Below, one piece after another: positions 33,853 through 52,600 of a stretch of DNA of 56,686 bases. The stretch comes from a virus: positions 1 through 56,686 of IMG/VR virus record IMGVR_UViG_3300021964_000082, one strand, 5' to 3'. The notes beneath the pieces are model-generated. The model saw only the letters and a program-made list of their open reading frames with translations, did no database searches and was not told where the DNA came from. Every line of letters begins with the position of its first letter. Within the stretch, counting starts at the first letter, position 1. Made by a program: the position numbers and the translations under genes.

Positions 33853-36800
33853 ATGGCAAAGAAAAGAAGATCTCAATCATCAGCCCGTGGAAACACTCAA
33901 CCTACAATGCAAAATACATCTTCAACAGATGTAAGAACATTTTTAAAAGGTTTGGTAAAAGATACTAATGCTTCTTTTCAAGCAAAAGATACATGGTCAC
34001 ATGCGCGTAATGCTATAAACAATTCTGTAGATGGTGATCTTGCCGTTATTGGAAATGAACCAGGAAATATACTTTGTGCACAAGCTCCCTATTCTATTAT
34101 AGGAGCAATACACACTTATGCTGATCAATGGGTTATTTATTCCACTGATGATATAAATTCAGAAATAGGATTATTTGATGATAGCAAATGTGAATATACA
34201 ACTCTTGTAAATGATCCTTGTTTAGGATTTAACAAACTACATCTTATTACAGGTGCGGCAAAAGAAAATTTTGATTGTACTTGGCAAGTATATTGGGATG
34301 ATGGAAACAATCCATCAAGAACAATGAATATCAATGATATTCCTTGGAAAAAAATAGTTGTATCTAATCCTGGAGATGATTGTTTAATATACGAAGACAC
34401 AGATGAATTAGATTGTGAAGAAATTAGACTTGCTCCTTTGCTAGATACTCCATGTGTAGAAATCACAAAATCTGTTAGTGGTGGACAATTAAGAAATGGA
34501 TCTTATCAAGCGTTTATTGCCTATGTTGTAAATGAACAAAGAGTAACTGATTATATTGGGGTTTCTAATATTCAATCTTTATTTGATCATTCAGGTACAT
34601 CAGGTTCTATAACTTTATCAATTACTAATCTTGATAAAGATTTTGAATTTTATGAATTGGTTATTTTATCAAATAATCAAGAGCAACAGGTTGCTAAAAA
34701 AATAGGAATTTATAGTACAGAGCAATCAAGGATTGAAATTGATTATATAGATCAATCTTTGGTTACTGTTCCTTTGCAAATGATACCATTAAGAACACCA
34801 GCTTATGAGAAATCAGAAGCCATGTATGTTGTTAATGATTACTTAATTAGACAAGGTCCTATTGAACAATTTGATTTTAATTACCAACCATTGGCAAATC
34901 AAATTAAATCAAAATGGGTTGTTGCTGAGTATGATGCTAATTATTATTACAACGGTGGTAATAAAACTGGATTTATGCGTGATGAGCAATATGCTTTTTT
35001 TATACGTTGGATATATAATACAGGTGAAAGATCAAGCTCATATCATATACCAGGAAGAGCACCTAAGAGAAATGGTTTAAATCAATTTGGTCAAGTTCTA
35101 GATGAGTTGGGAGCTAATTTTACTGATAATGCACTTACACCGGATGAACAAAATTTCCAAGTGTATAATACAGCAACCAAAGATCCTGGCACATTCAATA
35201 TACCAACTGGAGATGGTGGAACTATTATAGCTAAAGGTGATATGGCTTATTGGCAATCTACAGAAAAATATCCAGCAACAAAACCTGAAATTTGGGATGA
35301 TCTTTGTGGTAAATACATTAGGCATCATAAAATGCCAACAGAGGAAATTACATCTGATTTAGAATTGTATAATTCAACAGAACAAAAAATCAGAATACTT
35401 GGTGTAGAATTTTATAATATAAAACCACCAGTTGATAATGATGGTAATGTGCTTGCAAATATTGTAGGATATGAAATTTTAAGAGGTTCTAGAGAAGGTC
35501 ATAGATCTATTCTTGCAAAAGGTATATTTAGAAATATGAGAGAGTATACCATCCCAGAAGGTGGACAAACTCTTGGTAATGATAAAGGTTTATACCCTAA
35601 CTATCCTTATAATGATTTAAGACCTGATATTTATTTCCATGATGGTGAAGCTAATGATCAACATAGAACCGATGGTTGTGATACATTTACAGAATCTAAA
35701 AATAACTATTCACCATTAGAAGGTTATAAAAAAGATTATTTTACATTTCACTCTCCAGAGTTAATGTTTAGAAGACCTTTTTTGAATGCATATGAAACTA
35801 GAATATATGGTGAACTAGCTGGTGAGTCAATTGGTCATTTTATTAAATCTGAAAATCATCCACAAAATAAATTACTTAGAAATGGTGCTGCAGTATTAGC
35901 TGGTATTGTTGGTGTTGGTTATGCAATAAAACAAGTACAAGGTGTACCACAAAAAGTATATAAAGGTATTGGTTATAATAATCCATTATTTGATCCGTGG
36001 GCTGGACCAGCCGGTGCTTCTTTATCATCTTTAGGTGGAGCAGTATATATTGCTAATGGTACATTAATAGCTGGTGGAGCTGCTATTGGTGGTTTGGTAG
36101 ATGCACTTATTGACGGACTAATAGATACAGCAACAGATATTGGTGATATATATACAGGTGGTGTGTTAAGTGGTGTTCTAGATACTTTAGAAAATGCAGC
36201 AAGCCCTCTTAAAATTGCAACAAGACCGGGTGCATTTGGTGGAGGAGCTGATAATGTTATAACAAAAGAAAGTTCTGATGCTAATTTGCCGTCTTTGATT
36301 AGAGTTGCTCTTGGTGCTGTTATAGCTCAAAAAAATATTGCTATTGGTGCACAAGAGGTTATAGATTTAATGTATAATTTGACAAAAGTAGAAGACTTTG
36401 CTTTTAAACATAACTCACATGGTTTTTATAATGATTTTATAAAAAGATTATCATCTCAATTATACAGAACAAAAAATCTTAATTCCAACTATATAAGTAG
36501 TGGTTTTCAAGAATTTGAAAATCATAAAATTAATAACTTATTTAGACCTATGACTGTAGCTATTGCTACAGAAGAAGAATTAGATAATCCCATAACTTTA
36601 GATAATTCAAGATATGTTATTGGTGGTGATGCTACTAGTGATTTTTTAAATAGATATTTAGAAAATCCAGATGAAGAAAGAACAACAAATATATCTTGTT
36701 TATATGGCGCATTAAAATTTGAATTTGAAAATCAATATGGTCAACTTGATGGTATTAAACAAATTCAAATGAGAGGTTGTATAGAGTTAGTTGATATACA

Positions 36801-38886
36801 AAACAGTACGCAAACATTTGAAACTAAAGCTTTATTTGCTGGTGATACTTATGTCAATAGGTATACTGAAAAGACAATAATGCCAATATTTGCTGATTTT
36901 TTAAATGGACAACCTGATGAATTTACATATGATTACTTGCAACGCGTAAATATCCCATATCCAAGATTTTGGATGGATACAAGAAAGTTTGATACAACTG
37001 CATTGGCCACTGAAATCATAACACTTGGTCTTGCAAATACAGAAAACACAGCTTTACCAAATGATTTATTTTATCTAGATAGAGGAGCTTCAAGCTGCGG
37101 GGATAGACTAAAGGATATGTTTAATGGCAATGATCCTAATCCGGCATTTGCAATGAGATATGCTTATATGTATACTCATTGTAATGGTGTACAAGATTTT
37201 TATGTAGAATCAGAATATAATACAGCTCAAAGAGATTGGGATGATGTGGATTCTAAAAGACATTATGATTATATAGAATTTGCAGAAGTTGATAGTTTAT
37301 TCCATGCCGATATTATTAAGGATGGTAACTTTTATAAGTATGATCTGTCACTAAGTGTATCTAAATTTGCAACACAAGTTACTTCTTTTGGTAATATTCA
37401 ACCAAGAGATTATGATCCTTTGATTGCAGAGAATTGTTATATAGAGTATCCAAAGAGATTATTATATTCATTAAGAGCTCAAGAAGAAGCTAAAAAAGAT
37501 TTCTGGAGGGTCTTCCTACCTAATAATTATAAAGACTTTAAAAATAAAGTAACTGTAATAAAACCAATTAATAAAAGCGGTGCATTGGTGCTTTTCCCTT
37601 ATCAGTCACCACAAATGTTCCAAGGGTTGGATCAATTACAAACTGATCTTGGTACTAAGCTTACAGTTGGTGATGGTGGTTTATTTAATCAACCATTCCA
37701 AAACATTGTTAACTCTGACTTATCTAATGAGTATGGTTCATCAGAAAGCGCAAGAGCTATAATAAACACACCTTCTGGATTATTCTTTATATCTCAAGCT
37801 CAAGGTAAGATATTCCATTATACAGGTAAACTAGAGAATATAGCTAATAAAGGAATGAAACAGTGGTTTAATAAGTATTTACCATCTGTTCTTATACGTC
37901 AATATCCTGAGCTTGAACAAAGCAAGCTTTCTGATAATCCTGTTATTGGTATAGGTTGTCAAGCAATCTATGATCCTAACTTTGATATTGTTTACTTTAC
38001 TAAAAAAGACTTTAGAGTAAAAGAAGAAATCAAAGATAAAGTAATATTTGATTCTGATAGATTTTTATACAAACATACTGAAGTTCATAGAGGTGTTGAA
38101 ATAGAAATTGGTGATCCTTTGTATTTTGAAAACGCTTCTTGGACAGTATCATATGATCCTAAAATACAGGCGTGGATTTCATTCCATGATTGGCATCCTG
38201 AATTAATGCTACCAAGTATTAATCACTTTTTTACCACTAAATCAAATAATGATCCAGCTGCTAGAAATATAGGTAGTATTTGGAGACATAATGGAAGATG
38301 TGATTTATATGCTAATTATTATGGTGTTGATTATCCTTGGGAAATAGAAATTACAGAAAACACTGGGGCTAATGTAATGACTTTAAGAAGCATTGAATAT
38401 CAACTTGAATCTTATGTATACAAGGGTAATTTAATAAACGGATGCGCTGATGATAGATGGCATGATCTTGATTATAATTTTGATGAGTCTATAATTTATA
38501 ATTCTGAACAAGTGTCTGGATTATTAAGATTAGAACTTCATCCAAAAGAAGATCCATATGCAATGATTCAATATCCTATTGTAAGTCCAAATGATATAAG
38601 AATATTATACTCTAAAGAAGAACAAAAATATAGATTTAATCAGTTCTATGATATTACAGATGATAGAGGTGAATTTAGTTCTATTCAACGTAATATTTTT
38701 ATTACTCAATTGAATGGTTATATTAGAGACTTAAATAGTGCTAATTTGAATTATAATAAAGAAGAAATTCAACATAAGAAATTTAGACATTATTATAATA
38801 AAGTTTTGTTTAGAAAAAATGTTTCTGGTGATAGAAAAATGCTAATGAAACTTGCAGCCACCAAGTTAAATTTATCCTTTAGATAA
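33853..38886 (+). CDS. crAss-type muzzle / tail stabilization protein, 1677 aa
   Basis: Distal tail nozzle protein that closes the DNA/cargo channel. The opening is diagnostic to me: FLKGLVKDTNASFQA, then NNSVDGDLAVIGNEPGN, QWVIYSTDDINSEIGLFDD, LVNDPCLGFNKLHLITGAAK and VYWDDGNNPSRTMNINDIPW follow the pattern of crAss-like stabilization proteins. The body is beta-rich with many Tyr/Asp pairs and includes FKHNSHGFYNDF (about residue 858). Residues about 678-776 are an unusually Gly/Ala/Ile-rich hydrophobic stretch that could contact membrane. The next gene starts within the stop (TAATG), coupling muzzle to cargo synthesis. Confidence 0.85.
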   Translation: MAKKRRSQSSARGNTQPTMQNTSSTDVRTFLKGLVKDTNASFQAKDTWSHARNAINNSVDGDLAVIGNEPGNILCAQAPYSIIGAIHTYADQWVIYSTDDINSEIGLFDDSKCEYTTLVNDPCLGFNKLHLITGAAKENFDCTWQVYWDDGNNPSRTMNINDIPWKKIVVSNPGDDCLIYEDTDELDCEEIRLAPLLDTPCVEITKSVSGGQLRNGSYQAFIAYVVNEQRVTDYIGVSNIQSLFDHSGTSGSITLSITNLDKDFEFYELVILSNNQEQQVAKKIGIYSTEQSRIEIDYIDQSLVTVPLQMIPLRTPAYEKSEAMYVVNDYLIRQGPIEQFDFNYQPLANQIKSKWVVAEYDANYYYNGGNKTGFMRDEQYAFFIRWIYNTGERSSSYHIPGRAPKRNGLNQFGQVLDELGANFTDNALTPDEQNFQVYNTATKDPGTFNIPTGDGGTIIAKGDMAYWQSTEKYPATKPEIWDDLCGKYIRHHKMPTEEITSDLELYNSTEQKIRILGVEFYNIKPPVDNDGNVLANIVGYEILRGSREGHRSILAKGIFRNMREYTIPEGGQTLGNDKGLYPNYPYNDLRPDIYFHDGEANDQHRTDGCDTFTESKNNYSPLEGYKKDYFTFHSPELMFRRPFLNAYETRIYGELAGESIGHFIKSENHPQNKLLRNGAAVLAGIVGVGYAIKQVQGVPQKVYKGIGYNNPLFDPWAGPAGASLSSLGGAVYIANGTLIAGGAAIGGLVDALIDGLIDTATDIGDIYTGGVLSGVLDTLENAASPLKIATRPGAFGGGADNVITKESSDANLPSLIRVALGAVIAQKNIAIGAQEVIDLMYNLTKVEDFAFKHNSHGFYNDFIKRLSSQLYRTKNLNSNYISSGFQEFENHKINNLFRPMTVAIATEEELDNPITLDNSRYVIGGDATSDFLNRYLENPDEERTTNISCLYGALKFEFENQYGQLDGIKQIQMRGCIELVDIQNSTQTFETKALFAGDTYVNRYTEKTIMPIFADFLNGQPDEFTYDYLQRVNIPYPRFWMDTRKFDTTALATEIITLGLANTENTALPNDLFYLDRGASSCGDRLKDMFNGNDPNPAFAMRYAYMYTHCNGVQDFYVESEYNTAQRDWDDVDSKRHYDYIEFAEVDSLFHADIIKDGNFYKYDLSLSVSKFATQVTSFGNIQPRDYDPLIAENCYIEYPKRLLYSLRAQEEAKKDFWRVFLPNNYKDFKNKVTVIKPINKSGALVLFPYQSPQMFQGLDQLQTDLGTKLTVGDGGLFNQPFQNIVNSDLSNEYGSSESARAIINTPSGLFFISQAQGKIFHYTGKLENIANKGMKQWFNKYLPSVLIRQYPELEQSKLSDNPVIGIGCQAIYDPNFDIVYFTKKDFRVKEEIKDKVIFDSDRFLYKHTEVHRGVEIEIGDPLYFENASWTVSYDPKIQAWISFHDWHPELMLPSINHFFTTKSNNDPAARNIGSIWRHNGRCDLYANYYGVDYPWEIEITENTGANVMTLRSIEYQLESYVYKGNLINGCADDRWHDLDYNFDESIIYNSEQVSGLLRLELHPKEDPYAMIQYPIVSPNDIRILYSKEEQKYRFNQFYDITDDRGEFSSIQRNIFITQLNGYIRDLNSANLNYNKEEIQHKKFRHYYNKVLFRKNVSGDRKMLMKLAATKLNLSFR

Positions 38887-41800
38887 TGAAAAAGAAGTTT
38901 GAACATAAAGAAAGTAAAGGGTTACCTGGTGGACCTAATGAAATGTTTACTTATGTAACAAGTGTATTTGATATATATCAAGCACCATCTAATATAGAAG
39001 GAGAAGGTATGTTTGCTGGAAAACCTTTTAAGAAAGGTGATCTTATAGGATTAGCACATAGCAATGGTCAACCAACATCTCAACTTGGTAGAATGCATAA
39101 TCATGATGAGAACTCTCCAACCATGATTAGCAAGAAAAGTGGTAATGATAGATTTGTATTTGCAGCTAAAGACTTACAACCAGGAGATGAACTTACTACT
39201 AACTATAGAATGCAACCTGAGTTAGAGCAACCAGAGGATTTTCAATATGGTGGTAGCGTTATGGCACCACCTAGAAAAGGTGTTAGAAAGAATTCTGATG
39301 GCAGTGAGTCAACACATCTTATGGCTACTGAGACTTTAGATGGGAAGAACTGGTTTTCATTTCCAACATTATTTCAAGATCCAGACGGTACTTGGATTGA
39401 TATGTCCAATAAACCTTGGCAAGAAGCATATGAAGAAGCCAAGAAAAGAGGTGAAGTTATAGACTTTGGTACAGATAAAGAAGCAGCAATTAAGTTTGGA
39501 GAAGGTTCTTGGAAACTACCATCTTATCAAGATAAAGGTGAAGTTGTACTAGATCCTAGAAGAACTATTGAACAAGACAATACACGTGTAAAACAGGTTA
39601 TTGTACCTCAAGAATTTAGACAACCATCTAGACCTGCTCAACCTCAAGCAACCATAAGTCAATATAATCCACCATCAACTTTTGAATATTTATTGAATAA
39701 AGCAGCTAATCCAATGACCACATTAGGATATGCTGTTAGAGGTCAAGATATACCTGATAGAGTGTCTGATAAAGATAACGTCTATGACATGGCTGCTGAT
39801 ATTATTAATCCAGCGGCATGGTTAGATTATGGTATTAAAGCTGTAGATGATTTATCTGAAGGTGATTTTGTAGGTGCTGGTTTAAACACACTTGGTGCTA
39901 TTCCGGCTGTTCCTGCAACTGTTGCTAATGCAAAAAATGTAACTAAAGTAGTTAATAAAATACCAGGTAGAGTTAATCCTAGATACTTTAAACCTAACGA
40001 AGATTTATGGTATAGACAGGTGGGTAAATCAGCTATAGATGATATTGCAGAATCTAAAGTAATTAGAGAACGTGGTGAAGATATATTAAAGTCTCAAGAA
40101 ATATATGATGATAGAGTTTTAAGAATGCAAGGAATTGATCCTAGTACTGGAAAACCTTTTGATAATTATCAAACTGCTTTTGAACAAAGAATTCTGGCAG
40201 CTAGACGTCCTAAATCACCTTATTTTCAAAAAGGTGAATTGTATTGGGGATGGAATAGAAAACCAGGAAAAGGTAAGCCTGGTAGAGGAGGAGATGCAGA
40301 TAGTGAATATCTCATAGAAAGTATGTTAGCTGATGATGCTTTTCATCCGGCTCATGTAAAGGGAATGTATCCTGATAATCCTGATAAATGGGTTGGTGAT
40401 ATTGGTATATTAAAGCCAAGACCAGAGTTTAGAGATCCTGCGAATTTTAACCTTTATCAGAGAAACTGGTGGTCTGGTTATAAACCAGTTAAACAAAATG
40501 GTGGTCAACTACCTAAAGCACAAGAAGGCAATGGTGAAGTACCATTAAACCGTGGTGAAATATTTAACATTCCCAGAACTGTTAGATATGAAAATGGTAA
40601 GATGGTTCTTCAAGATAAACCTATTTGGGATGGTATGCTTGATGAAGTTACTATTACTCCTACTACTGCATCTGAATATGCTTGGCAAGAAAACAGAGCT
40701 AATCAATCTACAGGTGGCTTAGAACCTGTGTATCCTATATTTGATTTAATGAGCTCAGGTTTAAGAGCACCTCTTACTAAAGGTGCTAAGGCTGTGCAGG
40801 GTGCTTTAACTTCTGAAAACACTTTAAGGGCTTTAGCAAGATCACCCTATGTTCCTAAAGTTACAAAGCCAGGTTTAATAAAAAATTATAAATCTAAATT
40901 TCCAAATGTAGATTTGCGTGGTACAGGTACTGGTAATTACAGCAAACTTGGTGTTAATGAATTAGGATTAGGTGTAGATGATTTTGGACCTCTTACTAAT
41001 TATGAGCGTAGTGCTATTTCTCAAGTAAATCAAACTCAACCAGCTGATGAAGTCTTTAATACATTTGTTCAAAGATATGCAGACTTCAATACTGATGATG
41101 CTTTATCAAATCAGCTGGCAGATTTTTCAAGACGTAACCCCAGAACTAAGTTTGAAATAAATCTTGGTAGAGATGTTACACCTTCTAAAAGAATGCAAGA
41201 AATATTTGATGATCCTGAATTAAATGTTCATAATGTTTTTAGCCATAAATCTTCAGGTCCTATGAATCCTATAAATGAATGGGGGAACGAGGGCAGGCTT
41301 TTTTATGATTCATCAGCTCGTAATGCTGCTGGGGAGTTTGAAAAAAATTTAAGAAGCTATGGTGAACAAGGTTTTTATGCTGCTAATGTTCCTATGGGAA
41401 AACCTGTAAAACAGGCGTTAACTTATAATAAAGACGGTAGAGTATTTGATTATGTAACAGAAACATTACCTGTTTCAGATTTTGTAGTAAATAAAGGTTT
41501 AATGAATCCTGATGTCATAGGGAATTTTTCTCGCTATAGAGGAGCTGGTGATATGGCAAATCAACATAACTTTTTATTAGGTATTACTAATAGTCCATCT
41601 GTTATTGTATCTGGTAATAAAGGTTTTGCTGGACTAAAAGGGGGTAATAAACTTAGAGAAAAAATAGGAGGATTAATTACTCCTGAAGGGGGTAAGGCCG
41701 TTCCTTCTTACAATAACCAAGTTGTTCCTTTATTAAAGCAGGAGTTTAATTTGTCTAAACCATTTGAAGGAACGTTTATAAAATCACCTAGTGTTTTAGA

Positions 41801-43973
41801 AACTTATTATAACAGTGCAGGTCAAGCGTCACCATATACTAATTTTCCTGGTATATTAGATATTGATGATCTGTTTACAACTGGAAAATCAAACTTAGCA
41901 AAAGGAGGACAGTTACCTAAAGCACAAGATGGTAATGGTGAAGCACCATTAAGCCGTGATGAAATATTTAATATTCCTAGGACAATGGGATATGAAAATG
42001 GTAAGATGGTTCTTCAAGATAAACCTATTTGGGATGGTATGCTTGATGAAGTTACTGTTACACCTTATACGCAAAGTCATATTTTATCTGATTATATGAT
42101 GAATAATAAAGCTACAGGTGGACTACAACCAGTTTATCCTATTTTTGATATAATGACTTTAGGTTTAAAAGCTCCTGCAACAGCTGGCGTTAAAGCTATA
42201 CAAGCAGGTATTAAAAATGCTCCTCTTAAGAAAACTGTTGATATAGGAAATAAGTATGTAAGCCCTTTTAGTTATAAGAGACTTTATCAATTTAATCCTC
42301 TTGCTAATCAGCGTCCTCCATTTACCACAGTAGCTAGAACTCAAATGCCTGGGCAAACAGGAAAACTAGTTATGGGTCAATACTATGATGACTTAGCAAA
42401 TCAAGGAAAAAAGTTAAACTGGAGGCAAAACTTAGATAGGAATTCTTCCAGAAGATTTGGATGGGGGAGAGGGTTTTCATCTGATCCTAATGACATAATG
42501 AACTATAGTCATCCTTCATTTACTGCTTACAGAGGCTATGACTCTAATGTAATAAATCCTGAATTACTAATTCAAAGATTTCCTACTAGTTATTTAGATG
42601 AGTTTATGGTTGGTAATTTAAGTTCTAATGCACAAAAGGCTTATGGTTCTGGTAAAAGGTTTGAAGAATTTATATTACCTATAGACGATGTTTTAAGTGC
42701 AAAATCAAAACCATTATCACGTGAAGCATATAATGAAATAAAAAATATACGTAATGCTGAAAATACACCACACTGGTGGAAAGGTTTTCAAGAAGTTAAA
42801 GCTTTAGGAGGATCACTACCTAAAGCACAGAAAGGAAATGGTGAAATACATACTGTAGCATCAGGTGAAACTTTCTTTGGTATAGCTAATAAATATAAAT
42901 TAGATAAACAAGATCTTATAGATGCTAACCCTGGTCTTAATATAGAAAGCATAAAGGCTGGTCAAACAATTAATCTACCGGTTATAGAAAAAATGGAAGC
43001 TGTTAACATATCGGCAGCAGATTCTAAGAGAGAACCTACTTCTTGGACTGATTACATTAATCCTTACAATTGGGGTGTTACTGATAGAGATGATGATGGT
43101 ACTTTTAACCAAGCTTTTAGAGCAGCTCGCAATGCAAGTGAGGATGAGTTTATGTGGTATGGTACAAGATATAATACAAATCTAAAACCAACGCCAGATA
43201 AATTAGAAGTTGAAGAAGTTTCTAATGAGGTTGAAGCAGTTAAAGAAACAGGACCCTTTGAGAATTACTCAGTTACTCCTGAGTTACTTTATAAGCAAGC
43301 ATTTGTAGAATCAACTTTAGATCCTAAAGCTAAAAATGATTTGGGCTATATGGGCTTAGGTCAAATAGGTGATAAATTAATTGCAGATTATAAAAAAGCA
43401 AATAAAATTGATGCTGTAGATCCTTATGATGCAAAGCAAAATCATGATGTTCAAGACTGGTCTATGAATGAATTATACAATGCCACTTTTATAGATAAAC
43501 CAGGTAGTACAAATGAAAATAGATTGCTTAAAGCTTTAGCATCATATAACTGGGGTAGAGGTAAGGTCAAAGACTTATTAGAAGAACAAAAAGCCAAAGG
43601 TGTTGACATATACACAGACACTAGCTGGACTAGTGAGTTACCAAAAGAAACAAGAGAATACATAGATATGATTCTCTATGATGGAGCAACAGAAAAAAGA
43701 CCATTAGTTCAAGAAAACTTTAAGAATGCACTTGTAGATAGTACTTATAAAGACATAAGAGATTTATACATATATAAATCAGGAGGAGAAAAAAATCAAT
43801 TTCAAATCTATAAAGATTATGTAGAAGGTGTATATGATGGAACTGAAATGGAAAAAGCTGCAGAAAAGATATATGATAAGCTAAATAGAGTTTATTATAA
43901 AGAAGCTAAAAAACAAGGAATGAGAGTGCCTAACTATATAATGACTAATGTAATCAAACAGATTGATAATTAG
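38886..43973 (+). CDS. Multi-domain virion cargo protein: SET-like, LysM and lytic transglycosylase, 1695 aa
   Basis: Residues 35-108 form a compact SET-like domain (NIEGEGMFAGK, NHDENSP at 72-78, AAKDLQPGDELTTNYR at 93-108), implying S-adenosylmethionine-dependent methylation. Residues 130-220 are a small domain common in phage internal proteins (NSDGSESTHL...FGTDKEAA). Linkers NGGQLPKAQEGNGE (538-551), KGGQLPKAQDGNGE (1006-1019) and LGGSLPKAQKGNGE (1307-1320) separate modules; two are followed by a duplicated block. Residues 1320-1362 are LysM (ASGETFFGIANKYKL). Residues 1457-1600 are a lytic transglycosylase with the putative catalytic E1475 (FVESTLDPKAKND, MGLGQI). Encoded directly after the muzzle gene, so probably packaged and ejected to open the cell wall and perhaps modify host proteins. 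Confidence 0.8.
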   Translation: MKKKFEHKESKGLPGGPNEMFTYVTSVFDIYQAPSNIEGEGMFAGKPFKKGDLIGLAHSNGQPTSQLGRMHNHDENSPTMISKKSGNDRFVFAAKDLQPGDELTTNYRMQPELEQPEDFQYGGSVMAPPRKGVRKNSDGSESTHLMATETLDGKNWFSFPTLFQDPDGTWIDMSNKPWQEAYEEAKKRGEVIDFGTDKEAAIKFGEGSWKLPSYQDKGEVVLDPRRTIEQDNTRVKQVIVPQEFRQPSRPAQPQATISQYNPPSTFEYLLNKAANPMTTLGYAVRGQDIPDRVSDKDNVYDMAADIINPAAWLDYGIKAVDDLSEGDFVGAGLNTLGAIPAVPATVANAKNVTKVVNKIPGRVNPRYFKPNEDLWYRQVGKSAIDDIAESKVIRERGEDILKSQEIYDDRVLRMQGIDPSTGKPFDNYQTAFEQRILAARRPKSPYFQKGELYWGWNRKPGKGKPGRGGDADSEYLIESMLADDAFHPAHVKGMYPDNPDKWVGDIGILKPRPEFRDPANFNLYQRNWWSGYKPVKQNGGQLPKAQEGNGEVPLNRGEIFNIPRTVRYENGKMVLQDKPIWDGMLDEVTITPTTASEYAWQENRANQSTGGLEPVYPIFDLMSSGLRAPLTKGAKAVQGALTSENTLRALARSPYVPKVTKPGLIKNYKSKFPNVDLRGTGTGNYSKLGVNELGLGVDDFGPLTNYERSAISQVNQTQPADEVFNTFVQRYADFNTDDALSNQLADFSRRNPRTKFEINLGRDVTPSKRMQEIFDDPELNVHNVFSHKSSGPMNPINEWGNEGRLFYDSSARNAAGEFEKNLRSYGEQGFYAANVPMGKPVKQALTYNKDGRVFDYVTETLPVSDFVVNKGLMNPDVIGNFSRYRGAGDMANQHNFLLGITNSPSVIVSGNKGFAGLKGGNKLREKIGGLITPEGGKAVPSYNNQVVPLLKQEFNLSKPFEGTFIKSPSVLETYYNSAGQASPYTNFPGILDIDDLFTTGKSNLAKGGQLPKAQDGNGEAPLSRDEIFNIPRTMGYENGKMVLQDKPIWDGMLDEVTVTPYTQSHILSDYMMNNKATGGLQPVYPIFDIMTLGLKAPATAGVKAIQAGIKNAPLKKTVDIGNKYVSPFSYKRLYQFNPLANQRPPFTTVARTQMPGQTGKLVMGQYYDDLANQGKKLNWRQNLDRNSSRRFGWGRGFSSDPNDIMNYSHPSFTAYRGYDSNVINPELLIQRFPTSYLDEFMVGNLSSNAQKAYGSGKRFEEFILPIDDVLSAKSKPLSREAYNEIKNIRNAENTPHWWKGFQEVKALGGSLPKAQKGNGEIHTVASGETFFGIANKYKLDKQDLIDANPGLNIESIKAGQTINLPVIEKMEAVNISAADSKREPTSWTDYINPYNWGVTDRDDDGTFNQAFRAARNASEDEFMWYGTRYNTNLKPTPDKLEVEEVSNEVEAVKETGPFENYSVTPELLYKQAFVESTLDPKAKNDLGYMGLGQIGDKLIADYKKANKIDAVDPYDAKQNHDVQDWSMNELYNATFIDKPGSTNENRLLKALASYNWGRGKVKDLLEEQKAKGVDIYTDTSWTSELPKETREYIDMILYDGATEKRPLVQENFKNALVDSTYKDIRDLYIYKSGGEKNQFQIYKDYVEGVYDGTEMEKAAEKIYDKLNRVYYKEAKKQGMRVPNYIMTNVIKQIDN
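40497..42200 (+). repeat. Intragenic direct repeat: linker plus conserved block, two copies
   Basis: Copy 1 (40497-40800) and copy 2 (41901-42200) encode GGQLPKAQxGNGE, EIFNIPRT, a YENGKMVLQDKPIWDGMLDE block and TGGLxPVYPIFDxM. The 68 bases 40585-40652 and 41989-42056 are identical, while the flanks differ at many third positions. This indicates recent duplication or gene conversion acting on the core. Confidence 0.85.
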
Positions 43974-43989
43974 GGATTCTGCTTAATAA

Positions 43990-44009
43990 TTTGTATATTA
44001 ATATTGTAT
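43990..44009 (+). promoter_or_regulatory. Predicted promoter inside the cargo cassette
   Basis: TTTGTATATTAATATTGTAT matches the recurring element and ends one base before ATG 44011. If it is a promoter the mRNA would be nearly leaderless. Confidence 0.45.
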
Positions 44010-44010
44010 T

Positions 44011-47000
44011 ATGGAGGAAAATATATTAAATAATATAGATATGACACAAGGTGTTACACCAGAGGGTGCTCAGGTGAATAATGCACCTATGGCTGATCTA
44101 ACAGATATTATTAAAACTCGTTTCCAGAATGGAGAGCCAGCATTAGATATTCTTGTTGATTTAATAATGCAAGGAATAGAACCTAACCAAATGGGTATGG
44201 CCTTTGAAGAAATTGGTTTTGATCCTGCTTCATATACACAATTATTACAGGATGCAGAAATTAAGTTGCAAGGAATGCAGCAACAAGCTCAAGCACAACA
44301 GCAAATGCAACAACAGCAAATGCCTGAGCAAGGTAATCAACAACTTCCTCCTGTATCTGAAGAAGAATTATTAGCAGAATCAGAAAAGGCTGCTAAAGAA
44401 ATTGAAAGTAAAGACATTCAACCAATGCAATATGGTGGTGGTACAAACAGAGGGTTAGGTCCATTTTTAGGATCTAAAGATCCCGTAGCACGTCCTTTGT
44501 ATTTACCACCTTTACCTGCTCAAGGGAATCTATTAGGTGCTGCCTATATGTTAGATGATGCAGCTGGTCAACTCTTTAGTAATAAAGATAGAGATGGTGA
44601 TGGTTTAATGGATGGTACTTTTAAAGATTGGTCTGCAAAAAGAGCTAGGTATAAAGATAAGCAACTTCAGAATAGAACTTATGAAATTGATTATGGTGAT
44701 TTAAATCCAGATGATTATTCAGCTACTTATCAAAATTTAGCAGATTTAACAGAGACAAAATTTTCAAAGTTTTTTAAAGGTAAAAAAGAAAGAGAAAGAA
44801 TAAACCAAGTACAGAATACAGGTTTGCAAACAAAAGAAGAGTTTGCTGAAAATGTTTTTAAAAATAGTTTAATAAACTTTAATCCAGAGACTGGAGAATA
44901 TGCTGCTGCATTTGCAACAAGACCTGAAGACTATGCAATGCTTGGAAAAAAACAGAAAGAAGAATTTGGTTTACTTGGTTCTAAAAAAGAAAGAAATACT
45001 TTAGAAAGATTTACTGAGAACTTATCAAATCAAGATGATATTGATTTGCAAATGATTAAAGAGGCCAGAAAATATGGTCCGGGTAGAGGTTTGAATAAAA
45101 ATAGAAGTTCTTATGATGAAAGTCTTATGACTCCTACTGAAATAGAACAATCTAGAAATGCCTATAGAGATATCATGTTAGGTAAACAATCAATGAATTC
45201 TGAGCAACCTTTTATTGATTTTAATCAAACTCAGGACTTTAGTGCTACCCCAAAACGCTCTATAGTGCAAATCCCCGAAGATCAAAATTCTTCCAATTCC
45301 CTTGATAGAGAAACAGCTTTTAAACAATGGGCTTTACAAGATCCTGTAACAAGAATGACAACAGCAGGAAGAAAAGAGTTTGATAGATTAAATCCAATGA
45401 GATATGGAGGAGGTTTAAGAAAAGCACAATATGGAATAAATGATTATGATCCTAACAACCCTTATGGTTTACCTGATTTTTCTCAGATGGGTCAGACATC
45501 TTATATTAATCCTGATACAGGAATGCCCTATGAATCTTTTATGCCTAATCCAATTCAATTAGATGAAATAGAAGGTCTGCAATCAAAAGGACTTGAACCA
45601 TTTGTAGTAGATACACCACAAATGGATTTATCTCCAATGAGTGTTCCTAGTCAATCTGCTGTAGATTTAACATCAAAAAGTTTGAATCAAGTTCCTACTG
45701 CGCAGCCTGATCTAAATCTAGCTCCAATAGATTTTCCTGAAGCAACTAAAATAGAAGGGTTAAAATCAAAAGCTTTAACTGAAATACCTACTGAGATGCC
45801 AGAAATGAAACTGGCTCCAATTGATTTAACACCACCAACACAAACTTCAACAGATGAAAATGTTGAAAGACCAACTGTAAAAAGAAAAAGAAGAATTGGT
45901 AATGCTATAAAACAAGCTGAGACTTTTATAAAAGAAGATCCAGCTATGCGTGCTTATGGTGATGTTTCTGATTTTGCAGTGAAGGGTGCTAATCTAGCAA
46001 ATGAAATTTTTCAGCAAAAAGAATTTAATGATTACAAAAATAAGTTAAGAAACTTAACTAACGCTGATAAAGTATACTTAGCATCTGAAGATCCTGTAAA
46101 TAAAAGAGGCACATTTGATGTTAATCTTGGATTAGCTGAACCAGATAATCTTGTTGATTATTATGCTCAGGCAATGTACGGTAGAGAAATGTATAAAAAA
46201 GGTGGAGAGTTTGAACCACATATGATGTATGATCCTGAAACCGGTAAAGGTTATAAAGCTAAAGTACCAGCTGATCATGAAAGAATGGCTAAAATGGGAT
46301 ACTTGCATAAAAATGAAATGCAAGATGGTGGGGAAGAAAGAAACTATGCTAAAGAACTTAAGGACGCATATAAAGATGGTAGTTTTTTAAAATACTTAGA
46401 GCATAATATAGATCAGTCTCTTGATGGTATGACCTATGATTTTCCATATACAGACAAACAACAAATGATAATAGATGAAGTTGATAAGGCTCAAGAAGAT
46501 TTATGGAGATATGAAGATAGACTAGTGCGTGACTGGAATGGTGATCCAAGTAGATTTACTGATGAAGAAAACGCAGAGCTAAAACGTTTAAAAGAAATTT
46601 TAGATGCTAAAAAAAATTCAAATGAATATAAGAGTCTTGAATCTGCAATGGAATTTAGAGATGTAAATACTGATCCGCTGAGACATAGTTATTCATCAGC
46701 TCTTACTAGTCAAAAGATAGCAGATAAAGTAGCAGGCTATATTCCTTTTTCAGACTATCTTCCTCATGATGAAATTATAGGTGCAATTGGTGCAAATATT
46801 TTAGGTGCGGGTCATGAGGCTACTGTATTTGATAGAGATGAGAGACCTTTCATGACAAAACTTCAAGAGTCTGGAATGGATATGTATAATAACTTTTTAG
46901 GTTCTTTAGTTGGTGCAACTACAAATACTCCAGAAGAAGCAGCAGCTTTAACTGAAGAATTGATTAAAAGAGGTTACACATCTTCAGGAAGAATACCAGA

Positions 47001-47085
47001 GAAACAAGAAGGTGGAGAACTAGAAGTAGATAATGACACTCTTGCTGCTTTGATAGCCGCTGGAGCTGATATAGAAATGTTATAA
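44011..47085 (+). CDS. Virion cargo protein with GG linkers, 1024 aa
   Basis: No enzyme recognised. Residues 88-112 are a Gln-rich run. GG linkers occur at 141-144 (QYGGG), 463-475 (MRYGGGLRKAQYG), 731-732, 773-774 and 1001-1002, related to the LPKAQ linkers of the preceding protein. Residues 191-201 (NKDRDGDGLMD) form an EF-hand-like calcium loop. Residues about 518-610 hold three imperfect copies of a Pro-rich unit (IEGLxSKxL...P...L(A/S)P). The C-terminal 24 residues after the last GG are acidic. Encoded between the transglycosylase protein and a crAss-type cargo protein, so an ejected internal protein is likely. Confidence 0.7.
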   Translation: MEENILNNIDMTQGVTPEGAQVNNAPMADLTDIIKTRFQNGEPALDILVDLIMQGIEPNQMGMAFEEIGFDPASYTQLLQDAEIKLQGMQQQAQAQQQMQQQQMPEQGNQQLPPVSEEELLAESEKAAKEIESKDIQPMQYGGGTNRGLGPFLGSKDPVARPLYLPPLPAQGNLLGAAYMLDDAAGQLFSNKDRDGDGLMDGTFKDWSAKRARYKDKQLQNRTYEIDYGDLNPDDYSATYQNLADLTETKFSKFFKGKKERERINQVQNTGLQTKEEFAENVFKNSLINFNPETGEYAAAFATRPEDYAMLGKKQKEEFGLLGSKKERNTLERFTENLSNQDDIDLQMIKEARKYGPGRGLNKNRSSYDESLMTPTEIEQSRNAYRDIMLGKQSMNSEQPFIDFNQTQDFSATPKRSIVQIPEDQNSSNSLDRETAFKQWALQDPVTRMTTAGRKEFDRLNPMRYGGGLRKAQYGINDYDPNNPYGLPDFSQMGQTSYINPDTGMPYESFMPNPIQLDEIEGLQSKGLEPFVVDTPQMDLSPMSVPSQSAVDLTSKSLNQVPTAQPDLNLAPIDFPEATKIEGLKSKALTEIPTEMPEMKLAPIDLTPPTQTSTDENVERPTVKRKRRIGNAIKQAETFIKEDPAMRAYGDVSDFAVKGANLANEIFQQKEFNDYKNKLRNLTNADKVYLASEDPVNKRGTFDVNLGLAEPDNLVDYYAQAMYGREMYKKGGEFEPHMMYDPETGKGYKAKVPADHERMAKMGYLHKNEMQDGGEERNYAKELKDAYKDGSFLKYLEHNIDQSLDGMTYDFPYTDKQQMIIDEVDKAQEDLWRYEDRLVRDWNGDPSRFTDEENAELKRLKEILDAKKNSNEYKSLESAMEFRDVNTDPLRHSYSSALTSQKIADKVAGYIPFSDYLPHDEIIGAIGANILGAGHEATVFDRDERPFMTKLQESGMDMYNNFLGSLVGATTNTPEEAAALTEELIKRGYTSSGRIPEKQEGGELEVDNDTLAALIAAGADIEML
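45562..45840 (+). repeat. Three imperfect Pro-rich coding repeats
   Basis: Three units of roughly 30 codons follow the scheme IEGLxSKxLxxxPxxxPxMxLxP(I/M). The first and third begin with IEGL(Q/K)SK, the second with LTSKSL. The DNA has diverged, so they look old and maintained at protein level, perhaps as an extended flexible spacer. Confidence 0.55.
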
Positions 47086-47087
47086 TT

Positions 47088-49613
47088 ATGGCAAAGATTA
47101 GATTAAAAAAATTACCTGATGGTTTTGAAATCAAAGATGGTAAGATTATAAAGAAGATGCAACACGGTGGTATGATGACTGGAGATCAGTCTGATTATGG
47201 TCTTGTTACATCTCCATATAATTTTGGTAATGATCAATTTAATAATACTGATGATAATAATGTAAGATATTCTTTATCTTCAGTACCAAGAGAGATGGCT
47301 AATCTTGAAGCCGAAGGTGGAGAAACTGTATTAACAGATTTAAATAATGATGGAAAGTTTGGTTTATATAATATAAATGGACCAAGACACAGTAAAGGTG
47401 GTGTACCAATGTACTTACCAGAACAATCATTTGTATTTTCTGATACACCTAAAATGAAATTTAATAGACAAGAGCTTGCAGAGTTTGGTATTGAGTCAAG
47501 AAAGAAAATGACTCCAGCTAAGGTTTCTAAAAAATATCAGCTTAATGAATTTATTGGTGCTATGGCGGATCCATTTGCTGATGATATAACTGTAAAAAGT
47601 GCAGAGTTGATGTTAGATAAAAATCTTATGAGTTTATCTAAACTTGCATTTGGTCAGGAACAAAAGAAAAAATTTGCTGATGGTGTTCCGTTAGCATCTC
47701 ATCCATATCTTATGGCAATGGGAATTAATCCTATTGAGTTTACACAACAAGTGGAAAACATTACAGCACAACAAGCTGCTCAAAGAATGTTTGATGGAAT
47801 GAATCCTGAACAACAAGCTCAGGTTATGGCTTTAAGACAAATGCTAGAGCAGTCTGGACAAATGCCACAACAACCTATGGCTGCATATGGTAGAGAATTA
47901 CCAAAAGCACAATTTGGTAATATTGGTAATTATGGTCTTTCAATATCATCTGGTAGAACACCAAGTTATTCAAGTATAGTACCTATGCCATCTGTTACTG
48001 GATTACTCCCCGGTGATCTTGATAGTGATGGTGATGGTGTAATAAATAAATATGATCCTGCACCATTAGATCCTACTGTTGGTGGATTACTTGCAAATAA
48101 CTCAATACCTGTTGCACCAGCCTCTGTACCGCCTCCTGCACCGGCTCCTGCACCGGCTAGTTCTCCAAGATCAAACAGTGGTTCAGGTTCACGCACAAGA
48201 TCTGGATCAGATGCAAACAACGTAGCATTTGATCCTGCTTTAGTTGAGTATTACAAAAAATTAGGCATTGATATTAATACATTAGGTATTAATGCACTTA
48301 AGTATAAAGACATACAATCATATGTGCCAGGAACTGGTTATTATGGGGGTGCTAAGAAAAATCAAGCTGGTTTCTTTGAAAGTTGGAAAGGCGTATATCC
48401 AGATTTGGATAAAATGCAAGAGTCAATTAAAAAGCAAGTAACAGATGCTGATGGTGGTAACCCAGAAGTTAAGAAATTTCAAAAATGGCTTAATGATGTA
48501 TATATTCCAGAAGAAGTTGAATTAATAAAAAAGAAAACAATTGATGCTGGTGGTACTTGGGGTGATAATGCATCTGAAGAATTAAAGACACGTTTGCTTG
48601 GTGATTATGGTTTTGATCCTAATCAAAAAGGAAAAGCTTATGATGGAGATTTTGGTACCTTTACTTCTTCAAGAAGACCTATAGGTTTTGAAGCAACTCC
48701 TCCACCTGAAACTAAAGACGGTTGTCCTTGTGAAGATGGATCTTATTCTAAAGAATGTTGTCCTACTCCTAAAGATCCTGAATATAAATACACACCACCT
48801 CAGTTTGATTTCTTTACTCAAGATATGCTAAAGATGGGTGCTTTAGCAATGAGAGATAGAGATATGTTCTTGCCCTGGCAACCTGCTGTAGAAATACCAA
48901 AAGTTGATTATGTTCTTGAAGAACCTACTAGACAACTTGCAGATGTAAATGAGCAGTTTAATATTATGGGCCAATCACTTGGTGCATTTGCTGGACCTCA
49001 GTCTTTAAATGCTAGAATGTCTAAAGCTGCTGGTGATAGTCTTAGAGCTAATGCAAATACCTTTGCTCAAGTACATGGTAGAAATATTGGTACCGTAAAT
49101 AAGGGTAAAGCCTTGAATGCTCAGTTTGAAGCTGTAGCTAAGAATGAACAAAGAGATAGAAGTGTTAAGTTATTTGATGATACTCAATTAACTCTTCAAG
49201 GTTATATGGATGAGAAAAACTTGGATAGGGAAACTTTAGCTGATCTTACAGCTAATGCATATACAAATGCAGCAAATGCTTATAACTTAAGTTCTTTGTA
49301 TCCTCAGTATAACATAGATCCAGTAACGGGTGGTGCTATATACTTTACTAATCCTAGAATGTTGGAAGCATCTAGATCACAAACTGCTATGATGACTCCA
49401 GAAGAATATATAAACTTAGCAAAACAGTTGGAAGCTGCAGGTATGGAAGTTAGTGGAGATAAGATGATGGATAGAATATTAAATCAGAATACAAGCAGTG
49501 ATCCAATGACTGATTTAAGAAATCAATATACAGGAACAGGTTATACAGCTAAAAAAGGAACTGAAATAAAACCCTATGCATTACCATTTTATACAGGAAA
49601 GACGGGGTATTAA
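47088..49613 (+). CDS. crAss-type capsid cargo protein, 841 aa
   Basis: The segment NLEAEGGETVLTDLNNDGKF, then NGPRHSKGGVPMYLPEQSFV and FSDTPKM (about residues 70-125), is a pattern I know from crAss-like virion cargo proteins. A QHGG linker lies at 25-28 and YGRELPKAQFG at 267-277. Two calcium-type loops are visible: D84-N86-D88-G89 and D310-D312-D314-G315-D316-G317...D323. Residues 343-376 are a Pro/Ala run followed by a Ser/Gly/Arg run, i.e. a flexible hinge. The C-terminal 270 residues are helical (SMSKAAGDSLRANA-type). Likely packaged inside the head and ejected through the muzzle. No enzymatic motif. Confidence 0.75.
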   Translation: MAKIRLKKLPDGFEIKDGKIIKKMQHGGMMTGDQSDYGLVTSPYNFGNDQFNNTDDNNVRYSLSSVPREMANLEAEGGETVLTDLNNDGKFGLYNINGPRHSKGGVPMYLPEQSFVFSDTPKMKFNRQELAEFGIESRKKMTPAKVSKKYQLNEFIGAMADPFADDITVKSAELMLDKNLMSLSKLAFGQEQKKKFADGVPLASHPYLMAMGINPIEFTQQVENITAQQAAQRMFDGMNPEQQAQVMALRQMLEQSGQMPQQPMAAYGRELPKAQFGNIGNYGLSISSGRTPSYSSIVPMPSVTGLLPGDLDSDGDGVINKYDPAPLDPTVGGLLANNSIPVAPASVPPPAPAPAPASSPRSNSGSGSRTRSGSDANNVAFDPALVEYYKKLGIDINTLGINALKYKDIQSYVPGTGYYGGAKKNQAGFFESWKGVYPDLDKMQESIKKQVTDADGGNPEVKKFQKWLNDVYIPEEVELIKKKTIDAGGTWGDNASEELKTRLLGDYGFDPNQKGKAYDGDFGTFTSSRRPIGFEATPPPETKDGCPCEDGSYSKECCPTPKDPEYKYTPPQFDFFTQDMLKMGALAMRDRDMFLPWQPAVEIPKVDYVLEEPTRQLADVNEQFNIMGQSLGAFAGPQSLNARMSKAAGDSLRANANTFAQVHGRNIGTVNKGKALNAQFEAVAKNEQRDRSVKLFDDTQLTLQGYMDEKNLDRETLADLTANAYTNAANAYNLSSLYPQYNIDPVTGGAIYFTNPRMLEASRSQTAMMTPEEYINLAKQLEAAGMEVSGDKMMDRILNQNTSSDPMTDLRNQYTGTGYTAKKGTEIKPYALPFYTGKTGY

Positions 49614-49672: not shown

Positions 49673-52600
49673 ATGGCAACATACGTACCAGGATATAAAA
49701 GATATGAAAGAGATTTTGAACCGTTTCAGCCGGATTTCAAATTCTTGGACAATGTGTTATCCATAAGACAAGATAGATACAATACCAACTACAAGCAAAT
49801 GAATGACTTGTATGGCAAAATTGTATATGCTGAATTATCAAGAGATGATACAAAAGAAATAAGAGATCAATACACCAAACAGTTAATACCCAAAGTACAA
49901 CAAGCTTCAGGTATGGATTTATCTATTCAAGCTAATGTTGATGCTGCTCAATCTTTATTTACCCCATTTTATGAAGATGATCTTATAGTAAGGGATTTGG
50001 TTAATACTTCATCTTATAAAGGTGCAATGAGAATTGCAAACTCCTACAAAGATTCTGACGATGATGAAACTAGGAGAAAATATTGGAGTACTGGAATAGA
50101 AGCACTTCAATATCAAATGGAAGACTTTATTACTGCAGATAGAGATGCAGCTGTTAATATGGCTCCTCCAACATATGTACCTAATGCAGATTTATATAAT
50201 GTTGCAAATGAATATCTTAAAGAGCAGGGTTATGAGATGAAATGGGTTACGGGGGTAGGTGGTAATTCTAAGTTTATAATTACTGGAGAAAACGGAGAAA
50301 GACTCATACCAACAGCATATGCAGATTTACAAAATGCAATGCAGAATGATCCTCGTATTATTGATGCATATAGAACTGATGCATATGTACAATCTAGAAG
50401 GTTTGCCGCTCAAGGTATGGAAGCAGGTAAATACAATTCTATACAAGAAGGTAGAAACGCTTGGGCTCAAAATACAATTCAAGAACTAAGAGATAGAGCA
50501 GCTAAAGCAAGTCCAATGCTTCAAAAGCAATATGAAGACGCATTGGCTTCAAAAGAAAGTTGGGAAAAATATGCTTCTAATAAAGGTATAACATTATCTG
50601 ATCAAGAAGTTGAATCAATGCAACTTGCTAATACAGAATATGAAGAAGCTTTATTAGCTGTAAAAAATAATCAATCACAATTAGAAAGAGTTTCAACAAC
50701 TGATGAAAATACAGATTATGTAAATCTTGTATCATCATTGTTAATGAGTTATAACATAAGTTCAGATTTATATTCAGCTGCTAAAAACTACAGTATATCT
50801 CATGGTGGTGTAAAAAGTGTTACAGCTAACCCTTACACTAAAATGAAGATTCAACATAGTTATAATAAGGCTTTAGCTAGATACAAAGATCAACTTGAAA
50901 GAAAAAGAACTGTAGATGAAAATAATGCAGCAAGGCAATATTTAATTGATATAGGTGCAGAAACACCTAGCTTAACATCTACAAGAGTTGATGAGAATAG
51001 ACTTAATAATGCAATTGATGCGGACACGGAAGCGGTTCTTTCAAAATATGATGCATTGAGTCAGAAAAAACTTCAATGGCTTAAACAGTATCAATTTGAA
51101 ACAGCTGAAGGACTTTCAAACAGTAAGTCTTTCGTATCAATTACCAATAGCAATGGTGAGGTTATAAAAGGTAAGGTTGAAGAGGTATACAGAAAATTAA
51201 AAGAATCTGGAGATTTAAAAGCTATTGATACAGCGTATGAGTCATCAACAAAAGATTATGAAAATCTAATAGGCCCTGATTCAAAAAGACCAGATTTTAA
51301 TCCTTTGGTTTTAGGTAGTGGTCTTGCAGATATAAGAAAAGAGTCAGCACTTCTTCTAAAAGAAAAAGAAGTACGTGGTAATGTGTATAAGGATTTATAC
51401 CAAATGATCTTGGCTGGTGCTGGTACTGATGAAGATAATACTAATCAAGCTTTAGGAGAAACATTTAAAACTTATGAAAAGCAAGGTGTTCCTTCTGTAT
51501 TAAATTCTGATGGAACATTTAAAACAAAAGCAGAATTTATTAACGAATTTCAGAGCTTCAATCAGTCAGGTAGAATAAAAGATAAAGATGGTAAAGCATT
51601 ACCTGAAATGTCATATCAAGAAGCTACACCTATTTCATCTGAAGAAGTTCAAAAACGAAATGAAAACATTGCAAGAATGGGTGGTTGGTTAATGCTTAGT
51701 GAAGACCCTAATAGTAGTTTATATGCTGGTAGTTTTGCAAATGGTGGATCTGGAAATGGAAATGGATATGCCATGGCCGAAGAGATATATAATAAATATA
51801 AAGATGGATTCAATATGGCTTTGAGTGGTTCATTGAACAGTGAAGTTGATATATACCCTCAATATTCTGCAGATGCTTACTTTAGAGGTATAGATCCAGA
51901 TGAAATGACTTCTTCAAACTTATTTATAGATAGAAGTTATAGTTCTACTTGGAGTGCTTCTACTATGTTAGATGATGCACAAACAAGAAATCTTTATGGT
52001 AATTTTGTAAAACAATGGAATGGTACTGCACCTGAGTTTAGAGTATCAATATCATCAGCTGTAACAGAAGATGAAGGACTCAGTGATGCAAATAATAAAA
52101 TAGCCACACAAGTTTTTGAAAATATAATTAGTAAATCTCAGTCAGTGCTTGTAGATAAAGCAGCTGATGGAAAAGTTAGTCAAGCAAATCAAAATTTCCA
52201 ATATCGTTTGACATATGAACAAACCAAAATGATTAATGGTAAAGAATATGCTGCATATACAATTGATGGTATACCAAGAGATGATTTAAATAGTTTTATT
52301 GCTGGTAGTAAAGCAAAAGACGATAGTGATAATTTTATTGATTTAGATAATATAGATGATTATACTAAAGTTAGTTTCTTAGTACCTAAAGAAAGTGATA
52401 TAAGCCCATATAAATCTGATAATTATAATTTTTCTTGGGTTGATCAAGAAATTAATTTATCTGAAGATGGTATGTTTGAATATTTAGATCAATCAAGATA
52501 TGGCGGTTCATTAAAAGTTTATGAAGATAATGGTGGTTACATGTATGGTTATACACAAGCATATAGAGATAAAGATGGAGTTCTAAAATATAGAACTGTT

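What the first reader, a model, noticed from the sequence alone, without database searches (positions are those of the whole stretch)
38886..49613. Recurring GG-x-LPKAQ-x-G linkers across three adjacent cargo proteins
A short motif recurs at module borders. In the 1695-aa protein it is at 538, 1006 and 1307 (with a related YGG at 121). In the 1024-aa protein it is at 141, 463 (GGGLRKAQYG), 731, 773 and 1001. In the 841-aa protein it is at 25 and 267 (YGRELPKAQFG). It is absent from the ring, muzzle and 1016-aa proteins. Its placement between SET, unknown, LysM and transglycosylase modules suggests a common processing or docking signal, for example a cut after GG, that releases individual domains. 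I know of no described function for it.
Basis: partly seen in the sequence, partly recalled or inferred. Interest (0 to 1): 0.85.

Follow-up and report, generated by a model that had tools for sequence, protein, structure and literature searches.

The report
Repeated joint motif in injected phage proteins
A strict ten-letter protein motif, GG-x-LPKAQ-x-G, sits at the joints between exchangeable modules of the large proteins that crAss-like phages of the environment probably carry in the virion and inject into their host; it looks more like a docking or hinge tag than a cutting site, and the structure of a gut relative gives a direct way to test this.

Summary
The motif is real and far beyond chance. 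The window has three exact copies (1695-aa protein), one near copy each in the 1024- and 841-aa proteins, and diverged copies; several listed positions share only a GG. The window is a crAss-like phage. In 20 syntenic relatives, PKAQ.G occurs 47 times in the three genes after the muzzle and once in ring, muzzle and the two following genes. Over 119 viral stretches carry the motif; cellular genomes show only chance numbers. Codon choice at the motif is ordinary, so selection acts on protein. Homology blocks end at the motif 2.4 times as often as at control sites, confirming module borders. The 841-aa protein contains the portal-bound domain of crAss001 cargo protein 1 (profile P 1e-6). Gut cargo-1 proteins carry the same kind of GG motif (35 seen, 2.2 expected), and in crAss001 both virion-ordered segments begin at one (chance about 0.003). 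The portal-bound segment is modelled through its GG, so a cut there before ejection is unlikely. Best reading: a cargo-specific linear motif in module joints acting as hinge and docking tag. Cleavage after ejection stays possible. No published description was found in the open library searched.

The parts
38886..43973 (+). Cargo gene A (1695 aa): SET, unknown modules, duplicated ~100-aa stretch, LysM, SLT transglycosylase
   Evidence: ORF and Pfam; syntenic position after the muzzle
40500..40529 (+). Motif copy GGQLPKAQEG (aa 539)
41904..41933 (+). Motif copy GGQLPKAQDG (aa 1007), start of the duplicated stretch
42807..42836 (+). Motif copy GGSLPKAQKG (aa 1308), 14 residues before the LysM domain
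39246..39281 (+). Diverged copy YGGSVMAPPRKG (aa 121)
   Evidence: same module preceded by GGEVPKAQDG in L242
39510..39539 (+). Diverged copy WKLPSYQDKG (aa 209)
   Evidence: L150, 94% identical, has WKLPKAQQGK there
44011..47085 (+). Cargo gene B (1024 aa)
   Evidence: ORF; between A and C in relatives
45406..45435 (+). Motif copy GGGLRKAQYG (aa 466)
47088..49613 (+). Cargo gene C (841 aa), homologue of crAss001 cargo protein 1 (gp45)
   Evidence: hhalign A2 vs A4 P 1.1e-6, probability 91%; A7 vs A4 P 1e-5
47103..47126 (+). N-terminal degenerate core LKKLPDGF; relatives have KKLPQARTGY and SLPKAKSGM here
   Evidence: alignment A1
47268..47855 (+). Folded domain (aa 61-256) related to the portal-bound domain of gp45
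   Evidence: AlphaFold model; hhalign
47886..47918 (+). Motif copy YGRELPKAQFG (aa 267) in a disordered stretch just after that domain
33853..38886 (+). Muzzle protein (1677 aa), no motif
   Evidence: relatives
49673..52723 (+). Conserved 1016-aa protein, no motif copy at PSSM 20; possibly the C2 counterpart (by eye only)

Best explanation
GG-x-LPKAQ-x-G is a short linear motif specific to the C1-type ejected cargo of crAss-like phages. It lies in joints between modules, mostly at the start of a module, in three neighbouring genes after the muzzle. The GG is a hinge needed mainly when another module precedes; LPKAQ-x-G is the recognised core. Most likely the core docks each module inside the virion (portal, tail barrel or a scaffold) during loading, and the joint lets modules be threaded in line through the narrow tail on ejection. 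Shown: conservation, gene specificity, module borders, protein-level selection, homology of the 841-aa protein with the portal-bound cargo domain. Inferred: that the window's proteins are packaged, that the motif binds a virion protein, and that it serves loading and ejection.
For: Over 119 stretches in viral contigs, in frame in long ORFs with one exception, against chance level in cellular genomes. Iterated profile: 352 sites against 9 in shuffled proteins. 47 PKAQ.G in cargo A/B/C against 1 in ring, muzzle and the two following genes. Zero hits on the opposite strand or with the reversed pattern in 50 records. Codon use as elsewhere in the same ORFs. Module borders. Motif 267 in a disordered joint next to a confident fold. 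Portal-bound domain homology and a marginal structural match to an 895-aa Cellulophaga phi4:1 structural protein, same length as gp40, which is annotated from virion MS/MS. Gut cargo-1 proteins are rich in the related GG motif while C2 and muzzle have none; both ordered gp45 segments begin at one (PMC10172136).
Against: The gut motif shares the GG and the hydrophobic residue but not PKAQ, and the portal domain of P0003 does not begin with an LPKAQ copy, so the transfer from crAss001 is partial. Coordinates of the crAss001 structure could not be read, so contact between motif and portal is not shown. The A and B proteins have no homologue of known virion location. Only two ordered segments were compared.
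Confidence: 0.5

Rival explanations
1. Processing site: a phage or host protease cuts at the motif, during head maturation or after ejection, and frees the modules as separate effectors.
For: Strict, short, repeated sequence at module borders with a median spacing of 349 aa. Precedents: prohead protease sites in SPN3US (PMC10052503) and processing of phage P1 DdrB, discussed for polyvalent proteins (PMC5512222). HExxH metallopeptidase modules occur in cargo proteins of 9 of 20 relatives.
Against: Cores 7-12 residues from the N-terminus would release almost nothing. The gp45 ordered segment runs through its GG in the virion. MCP, portal, ring and muzzle lack the motif. No prohead protease recognised among 46 conserved genes of a close relative. 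The window and 11 of 20 relatives have no HExxH in the stretches examined.
Confidence: 0.22
2. Flexible linker only: the motif is a passive hinge spread by module shuffling, and the letters have no partner.
For: Motif predicted disordered; modules shuffle at the motif; some copies are degenerate.
Against: Passive linkers do not keep LPKAQ with free synonymous codons across unrelated flanks. Free N-terminal copies are not linkers.
Confidence: 0.2
3. DNA-level element: a recombination or insertion site that is translated by accident.
For: Modules are exchanged at the motif.
Against: Synonymous codon use equals the background, 41 different versions of the 15-base core among 116 sites; only one reading frame and one strand.
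Confidence: 0.03
4. Plain descent: internal duplication in one protein family, with the motif as a remnant.
For: Copies 539 and 1007 head a duplicated stretch.
Against: 122 distinct instances have no conservation beyond about five residues on either side; three unrelated genes share it.
Confidence: 0.03

Closest known systems
Cargo protein 1 (C1, gp45) of Bacteroides phage crAss001 (PMC10172136; PDB 7qog, 7qoi, 7qoj, 7qol, 8ckb)
   Same: P0003 is homologous over the portal-bound domain; same place after the muzzle gene; repeated GG-x-hydrophobic motifs at segment borders, absent from C2 and muzzle
   Different: C1 lacks LPKAQ; in the window the motif is spread over three proteins that also carry SET, LysM and transglycosylase modules
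Polyvalent proteins of phages and conjugative elements (PMC5512222)
   Same: Very large multidomain proteins mixing unrelated activities, encoded with late phage genes and presumed injected
   Different: No hit to a polyvalent-specific domain in P0001; I found no mention of a recurrent sequence motif at domain joints in the passages I read
Prohead protease sites and capsid targeting sequences of T4-like and giant phages (PMC10052503)
   Same: Short motif near the N-terminus or at a border in packaged, ejected proteins
   Different: No copy in capsid proteins, no recognised protease, many internal copies, much longer and stricter motif
Leptolyngbya phage Lbo-JY46
   Same: Closest reference phage by portal (34.5% identity); one LPKAQIG core at the N-terminus of a protein in the cargo region
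   Different: A single core without GG; no repeated module joints

Membership tests
Crassvirus cargo protein 1 (P0003) | Homology to the portal-bound domain (gp45 425-552) | tested here: met
   hhalign A2 vs A4: P 1.1e-6, probability 91%, 66 columns; single gp45 sequence alone only P 0.064
Crassvirus cargo protein 1 (P0003) | Gene in the cargo block downstream of the muzzle | tested here: met
   in the window two further cargo genes lie between
Crassvirus cargo protein 1 (P0003) | Presence in the virion | not testable with these tools
   No proteomics of this phage; the structurally similar phi4:1 protein is annotated from MS/MS
Prohead protease substrate | Motif also in capsid or portal proteins | tested here: not met
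Prohead protease substrate | A phage prohead protease gene | tested here: inconclusive
   None among 46 conserved genes of G038 at E 0.001; the lists are limited to 25 families and the window is partial
Polyvalent protein (P0001) | Several unrelated activities in one polypeptide among late genes | tested here: met
   SET, LysM, SLT; late gene block
Polyvalent protein (P0001) | Characteristic polyvalent domains | tested here: not met
   No such Pfam hit up to E 0.1
Double-glycine leader peptide | Single N-terminal leader cut after GG | tested here: not met
   Copies are mostly internal and multiple, and the conserved letters follow the GG
Sortase LPxTG signal | C-terminal LPxTG with a membrane tail | tested here: not met
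   Internal copies, LPKAQ, no C-terminal position

The most novel reading that the evidence does not exclude
The motif is an address tag: repeated copies bind repeated sites on the dodecameric portal or tail barrel, line up the modules of three cargo proteins in a fixed order and let the phage swap injected effectors at will, with the gut crassvirus GG motif as an older form of the same system.
Probability: 0.3. Interest if true: 0.85.

Novelty: new variant of a known kind. Interest (0 to 1): 0.72.

Why it matters
How crassviruses, the most abundant viruses of the human gut, load megadaltons of protein and thread them through a tail less than 50 A wide is open. A cargo-specific motif at module joints gives a sequence handle on which proteins are cargo and where their units begin, makes docking and ejection directly testable by mutation and on existing maps, and offers a way to list injected effectors in uncultured phages.

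Tried and rejected
DNA element: rejected by the codon test. Host origin: rejected, chance level in genome contigs. Close relatives of P0003 and P0001 in the phage records: none by tblastn. PDB fold search of the P0003 domain: no meaningful match, and hmmsearch of PDB chains none. AlphaFold of P0001 519-1695: pLDDT 33, uninformative except that confidence rises with the LysM just after motif 1308. C2 versus P0004 by hhalign: not significant, although the N-termini look alike by eye. A trend that copies inside proteins carry GG and N-terminal ones do not is partly due to how loci were chosen; with the selected copies removed it is 20 of 34 against 0 of 8, p = 0.004, sorted by hand. Papers naming the motif or a crassvirus cargo linker motif: none found.

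Full report
What is there. The window is the structural half of a crAss-like phage: terminase, portal, major capsid protein, a ring-type protein next to the muzzle (the relative G038 has a Crassvirales ring protein 2 hit, PF25702), and a 1677-aa muzzle at 33853-38886, with relatives in Leptolyngbya phage Lbo-JY46, csAssE-Sib, Cellulophaga phi4:1 and Flavobacterium phages. Three large genes follow: P0001 (1695 aa; SET, LysM, SLT), P0002 (1024 aa) and P0003 (841 aa). P0001 has three exact copies of GG-x-LPKAQ-x-G; P0002 has GGGLRKAQYG and P0003 YGRELPKAQFG. Two copies are diverged by homology: YGGSVMAPPRKG at 121 and WKLPSYQDKG at 209 of P0001.

More than chance. In 257 Gb of cellular genomes a slightly stricter form met 15 stretches, about what I calculate for random sequence (15). 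The 122 distinct instances share [FYK]-K-[YEDN]-GG-[SQE]-LPKAQ-x-G and no conservation beyond about five residues. A profile iterated over the fetched proteins finds 352 sites against 9 in shuffled proteins, in 155 ORFs, 100 of them with several. Variants include YGHDAPKAQ.G, SVFELPMAQ.G and NGGWLDKYQ.GG; the last was searched separately and gave 48 stretches, all in frame.

Which phages and which genes. Of 50 records searched, 35 carry the crAss-like portal family; the rest are fragments or unmatched. The pattern G-x-x-x-PKAQ-x-G is in 49 of the 50, never on the opposite strand, never in the reversed control. In 20 syntenic blocks the order is ring, muzzle, A, B, C, D, E. PKAQ.G occurs 39 times in A/B, 8 times in C, and once in ring, muzzle, D and E together, about 48,000 residues. 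The core was absent from 12 reference crAss-like genomes of gut, Cellulophaga and Flavobacterium; Lbo-JY46 has one, at the N-terminus of a protein in the cargo region: MKIRIIGLPKAQIG.

Protein, not DNA. At 116 sites the synonymous codons of the motif have nearly the same entropy as elsewhere in the same ORFs (leucine and lysine somewhat lower), with 41 different versions of the LPKAQ core.

Module borders. Motif sites and matched control sites were overwritten with random residues and the proteins compared all against all. Homology segments end within 25 aa of 41% of motif sites and 17% of control sites (p = 6e-12); segments begin there at 25% and 17% (p = 0.01); segments spanning the site are 3.6 times rarer per site. 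LysM begins 9-14 residues after a site in four proteins. The modules include SET, LysM, SLT, YkuD, amidase and metallopeptidases. The median distance between sites is 349 aa.

What the proteins are. AlphaFold of P0003 1-340 gives a confident domain at about 61-256 and disorder at 260-340, where motif 267 lies. Its family profile matches that of crAss001 cargo protein 1, gp45, within the portal-bound domain (P 1.1e-6, probability 91%). The best viral structure match is a Cellulophaga phi4:1 structural protein of 895 aa (probability 0.99, E about 1e-3), the length of gp40, which is annotated from virion mass spectrometry. P0003 is therefore most likely the C1 cargo protein of this phage.

The link to a solved virion. 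According to PMC10172136, two pieces of gp45 are assigned in the crAss001 virion: 214-245 on the tail barrel and 425-552 on the portal. GG motifs lie at 209 (SAYGGPL) and 427 (NAFGGWLNTQGG), at the start of each; MFAYGG at 562 follows the portal domain, as YGRELPKAQFG does in P0003. The chance of both starts lying within five residues of such a motif is about 0.003. Eight gut C1 proteins hold 35 such motifs against 2.2 in shuffles, the C2 proteins and the crAss001 muzzle none, and the GGs on both sides of the domain are invariant in the alignment. The link between the gut form and LPKAQ is by position and partial sequence (GGWL), not proven descent.

Mechanism. The evidence favours a linear motif that starts a module, with GG as hinge. 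N-terminal cores mostly lack the GG, which speaks against a cut after GG as its purpose. The gp45 model runs through its GG in the virion. Capsid, portal, ring and muzzle proteins lack the motif, and no prohead protease was recognised, though that search is not exhaustive. I therefore place docking with threading first (0.5), processing second (0.22), passive hinge third (0.2). Conservation, gene specificity and module borders are shown; packaging of these proteins, the binding partner and the timing are inferred.

Novelty. No paper in the open library names the motif or a crassvirus cargo linker motif; most subscription papers are not in it. The carriers are of a known kind, crassvirus cargo and polyvalent-like effectors; the strict repeated joint motif is a new feature of them.

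Noticed in passing
L145, L146, L147, L151, L154, L158, L161, L163, L164: Cargo proteins of 9 of 20 relatives contain HExxH modules of several kinds (some hit M91, SprT-like or DUF6782), which suggests injected or processing metallopeptidases; the window has none.
   Followed up: partly
L075:3195-3872, L075:5492-5962, L099:6693-7373, L099:8917-9387: Small proteins of 156-226 aa with N-terminal LPKAQ.G lie on contigs whose fetched genes did not look like the crAss-like cargo block; the motif may be used outside it.
   Followed up: no
L115:5620-6459 and L107:2796-3554: Small lysine-rich proteins with repeated KxQAGG / GGTLPKAQNGG units; in L115 the gene lies near genes resembling terminase and portal.
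   Followed up: no
L199-L245: Many cargo-type ORFs begin GAIAGGATPMKKINGGWLDKY..GG, a near N-terminal hydrophobic stretch followed by the GGWLDKY form of the motif.
   Followed up: partly
window 49673-52723: The N-terminus of the 1016-aa protein resembles crAss001 gp46 (C2) by eye; profile comparison did not confirm it.
   Followed up: partly
window 26054-26587: The 1707-aa tail protein ends in a sequence that looks like an S74 intramolecular chaperone (DQTFKDDV...RDIGLIAQEVEEVLPEIV), recognised by eye only.
   Followed up: no
window 8370-11129: The closest reference portal is that of a cyanophage (Leptolyngbya phage Lbo-JY46, 34.5%), which leaves the host phylum of this clade open.
   Followed up: no
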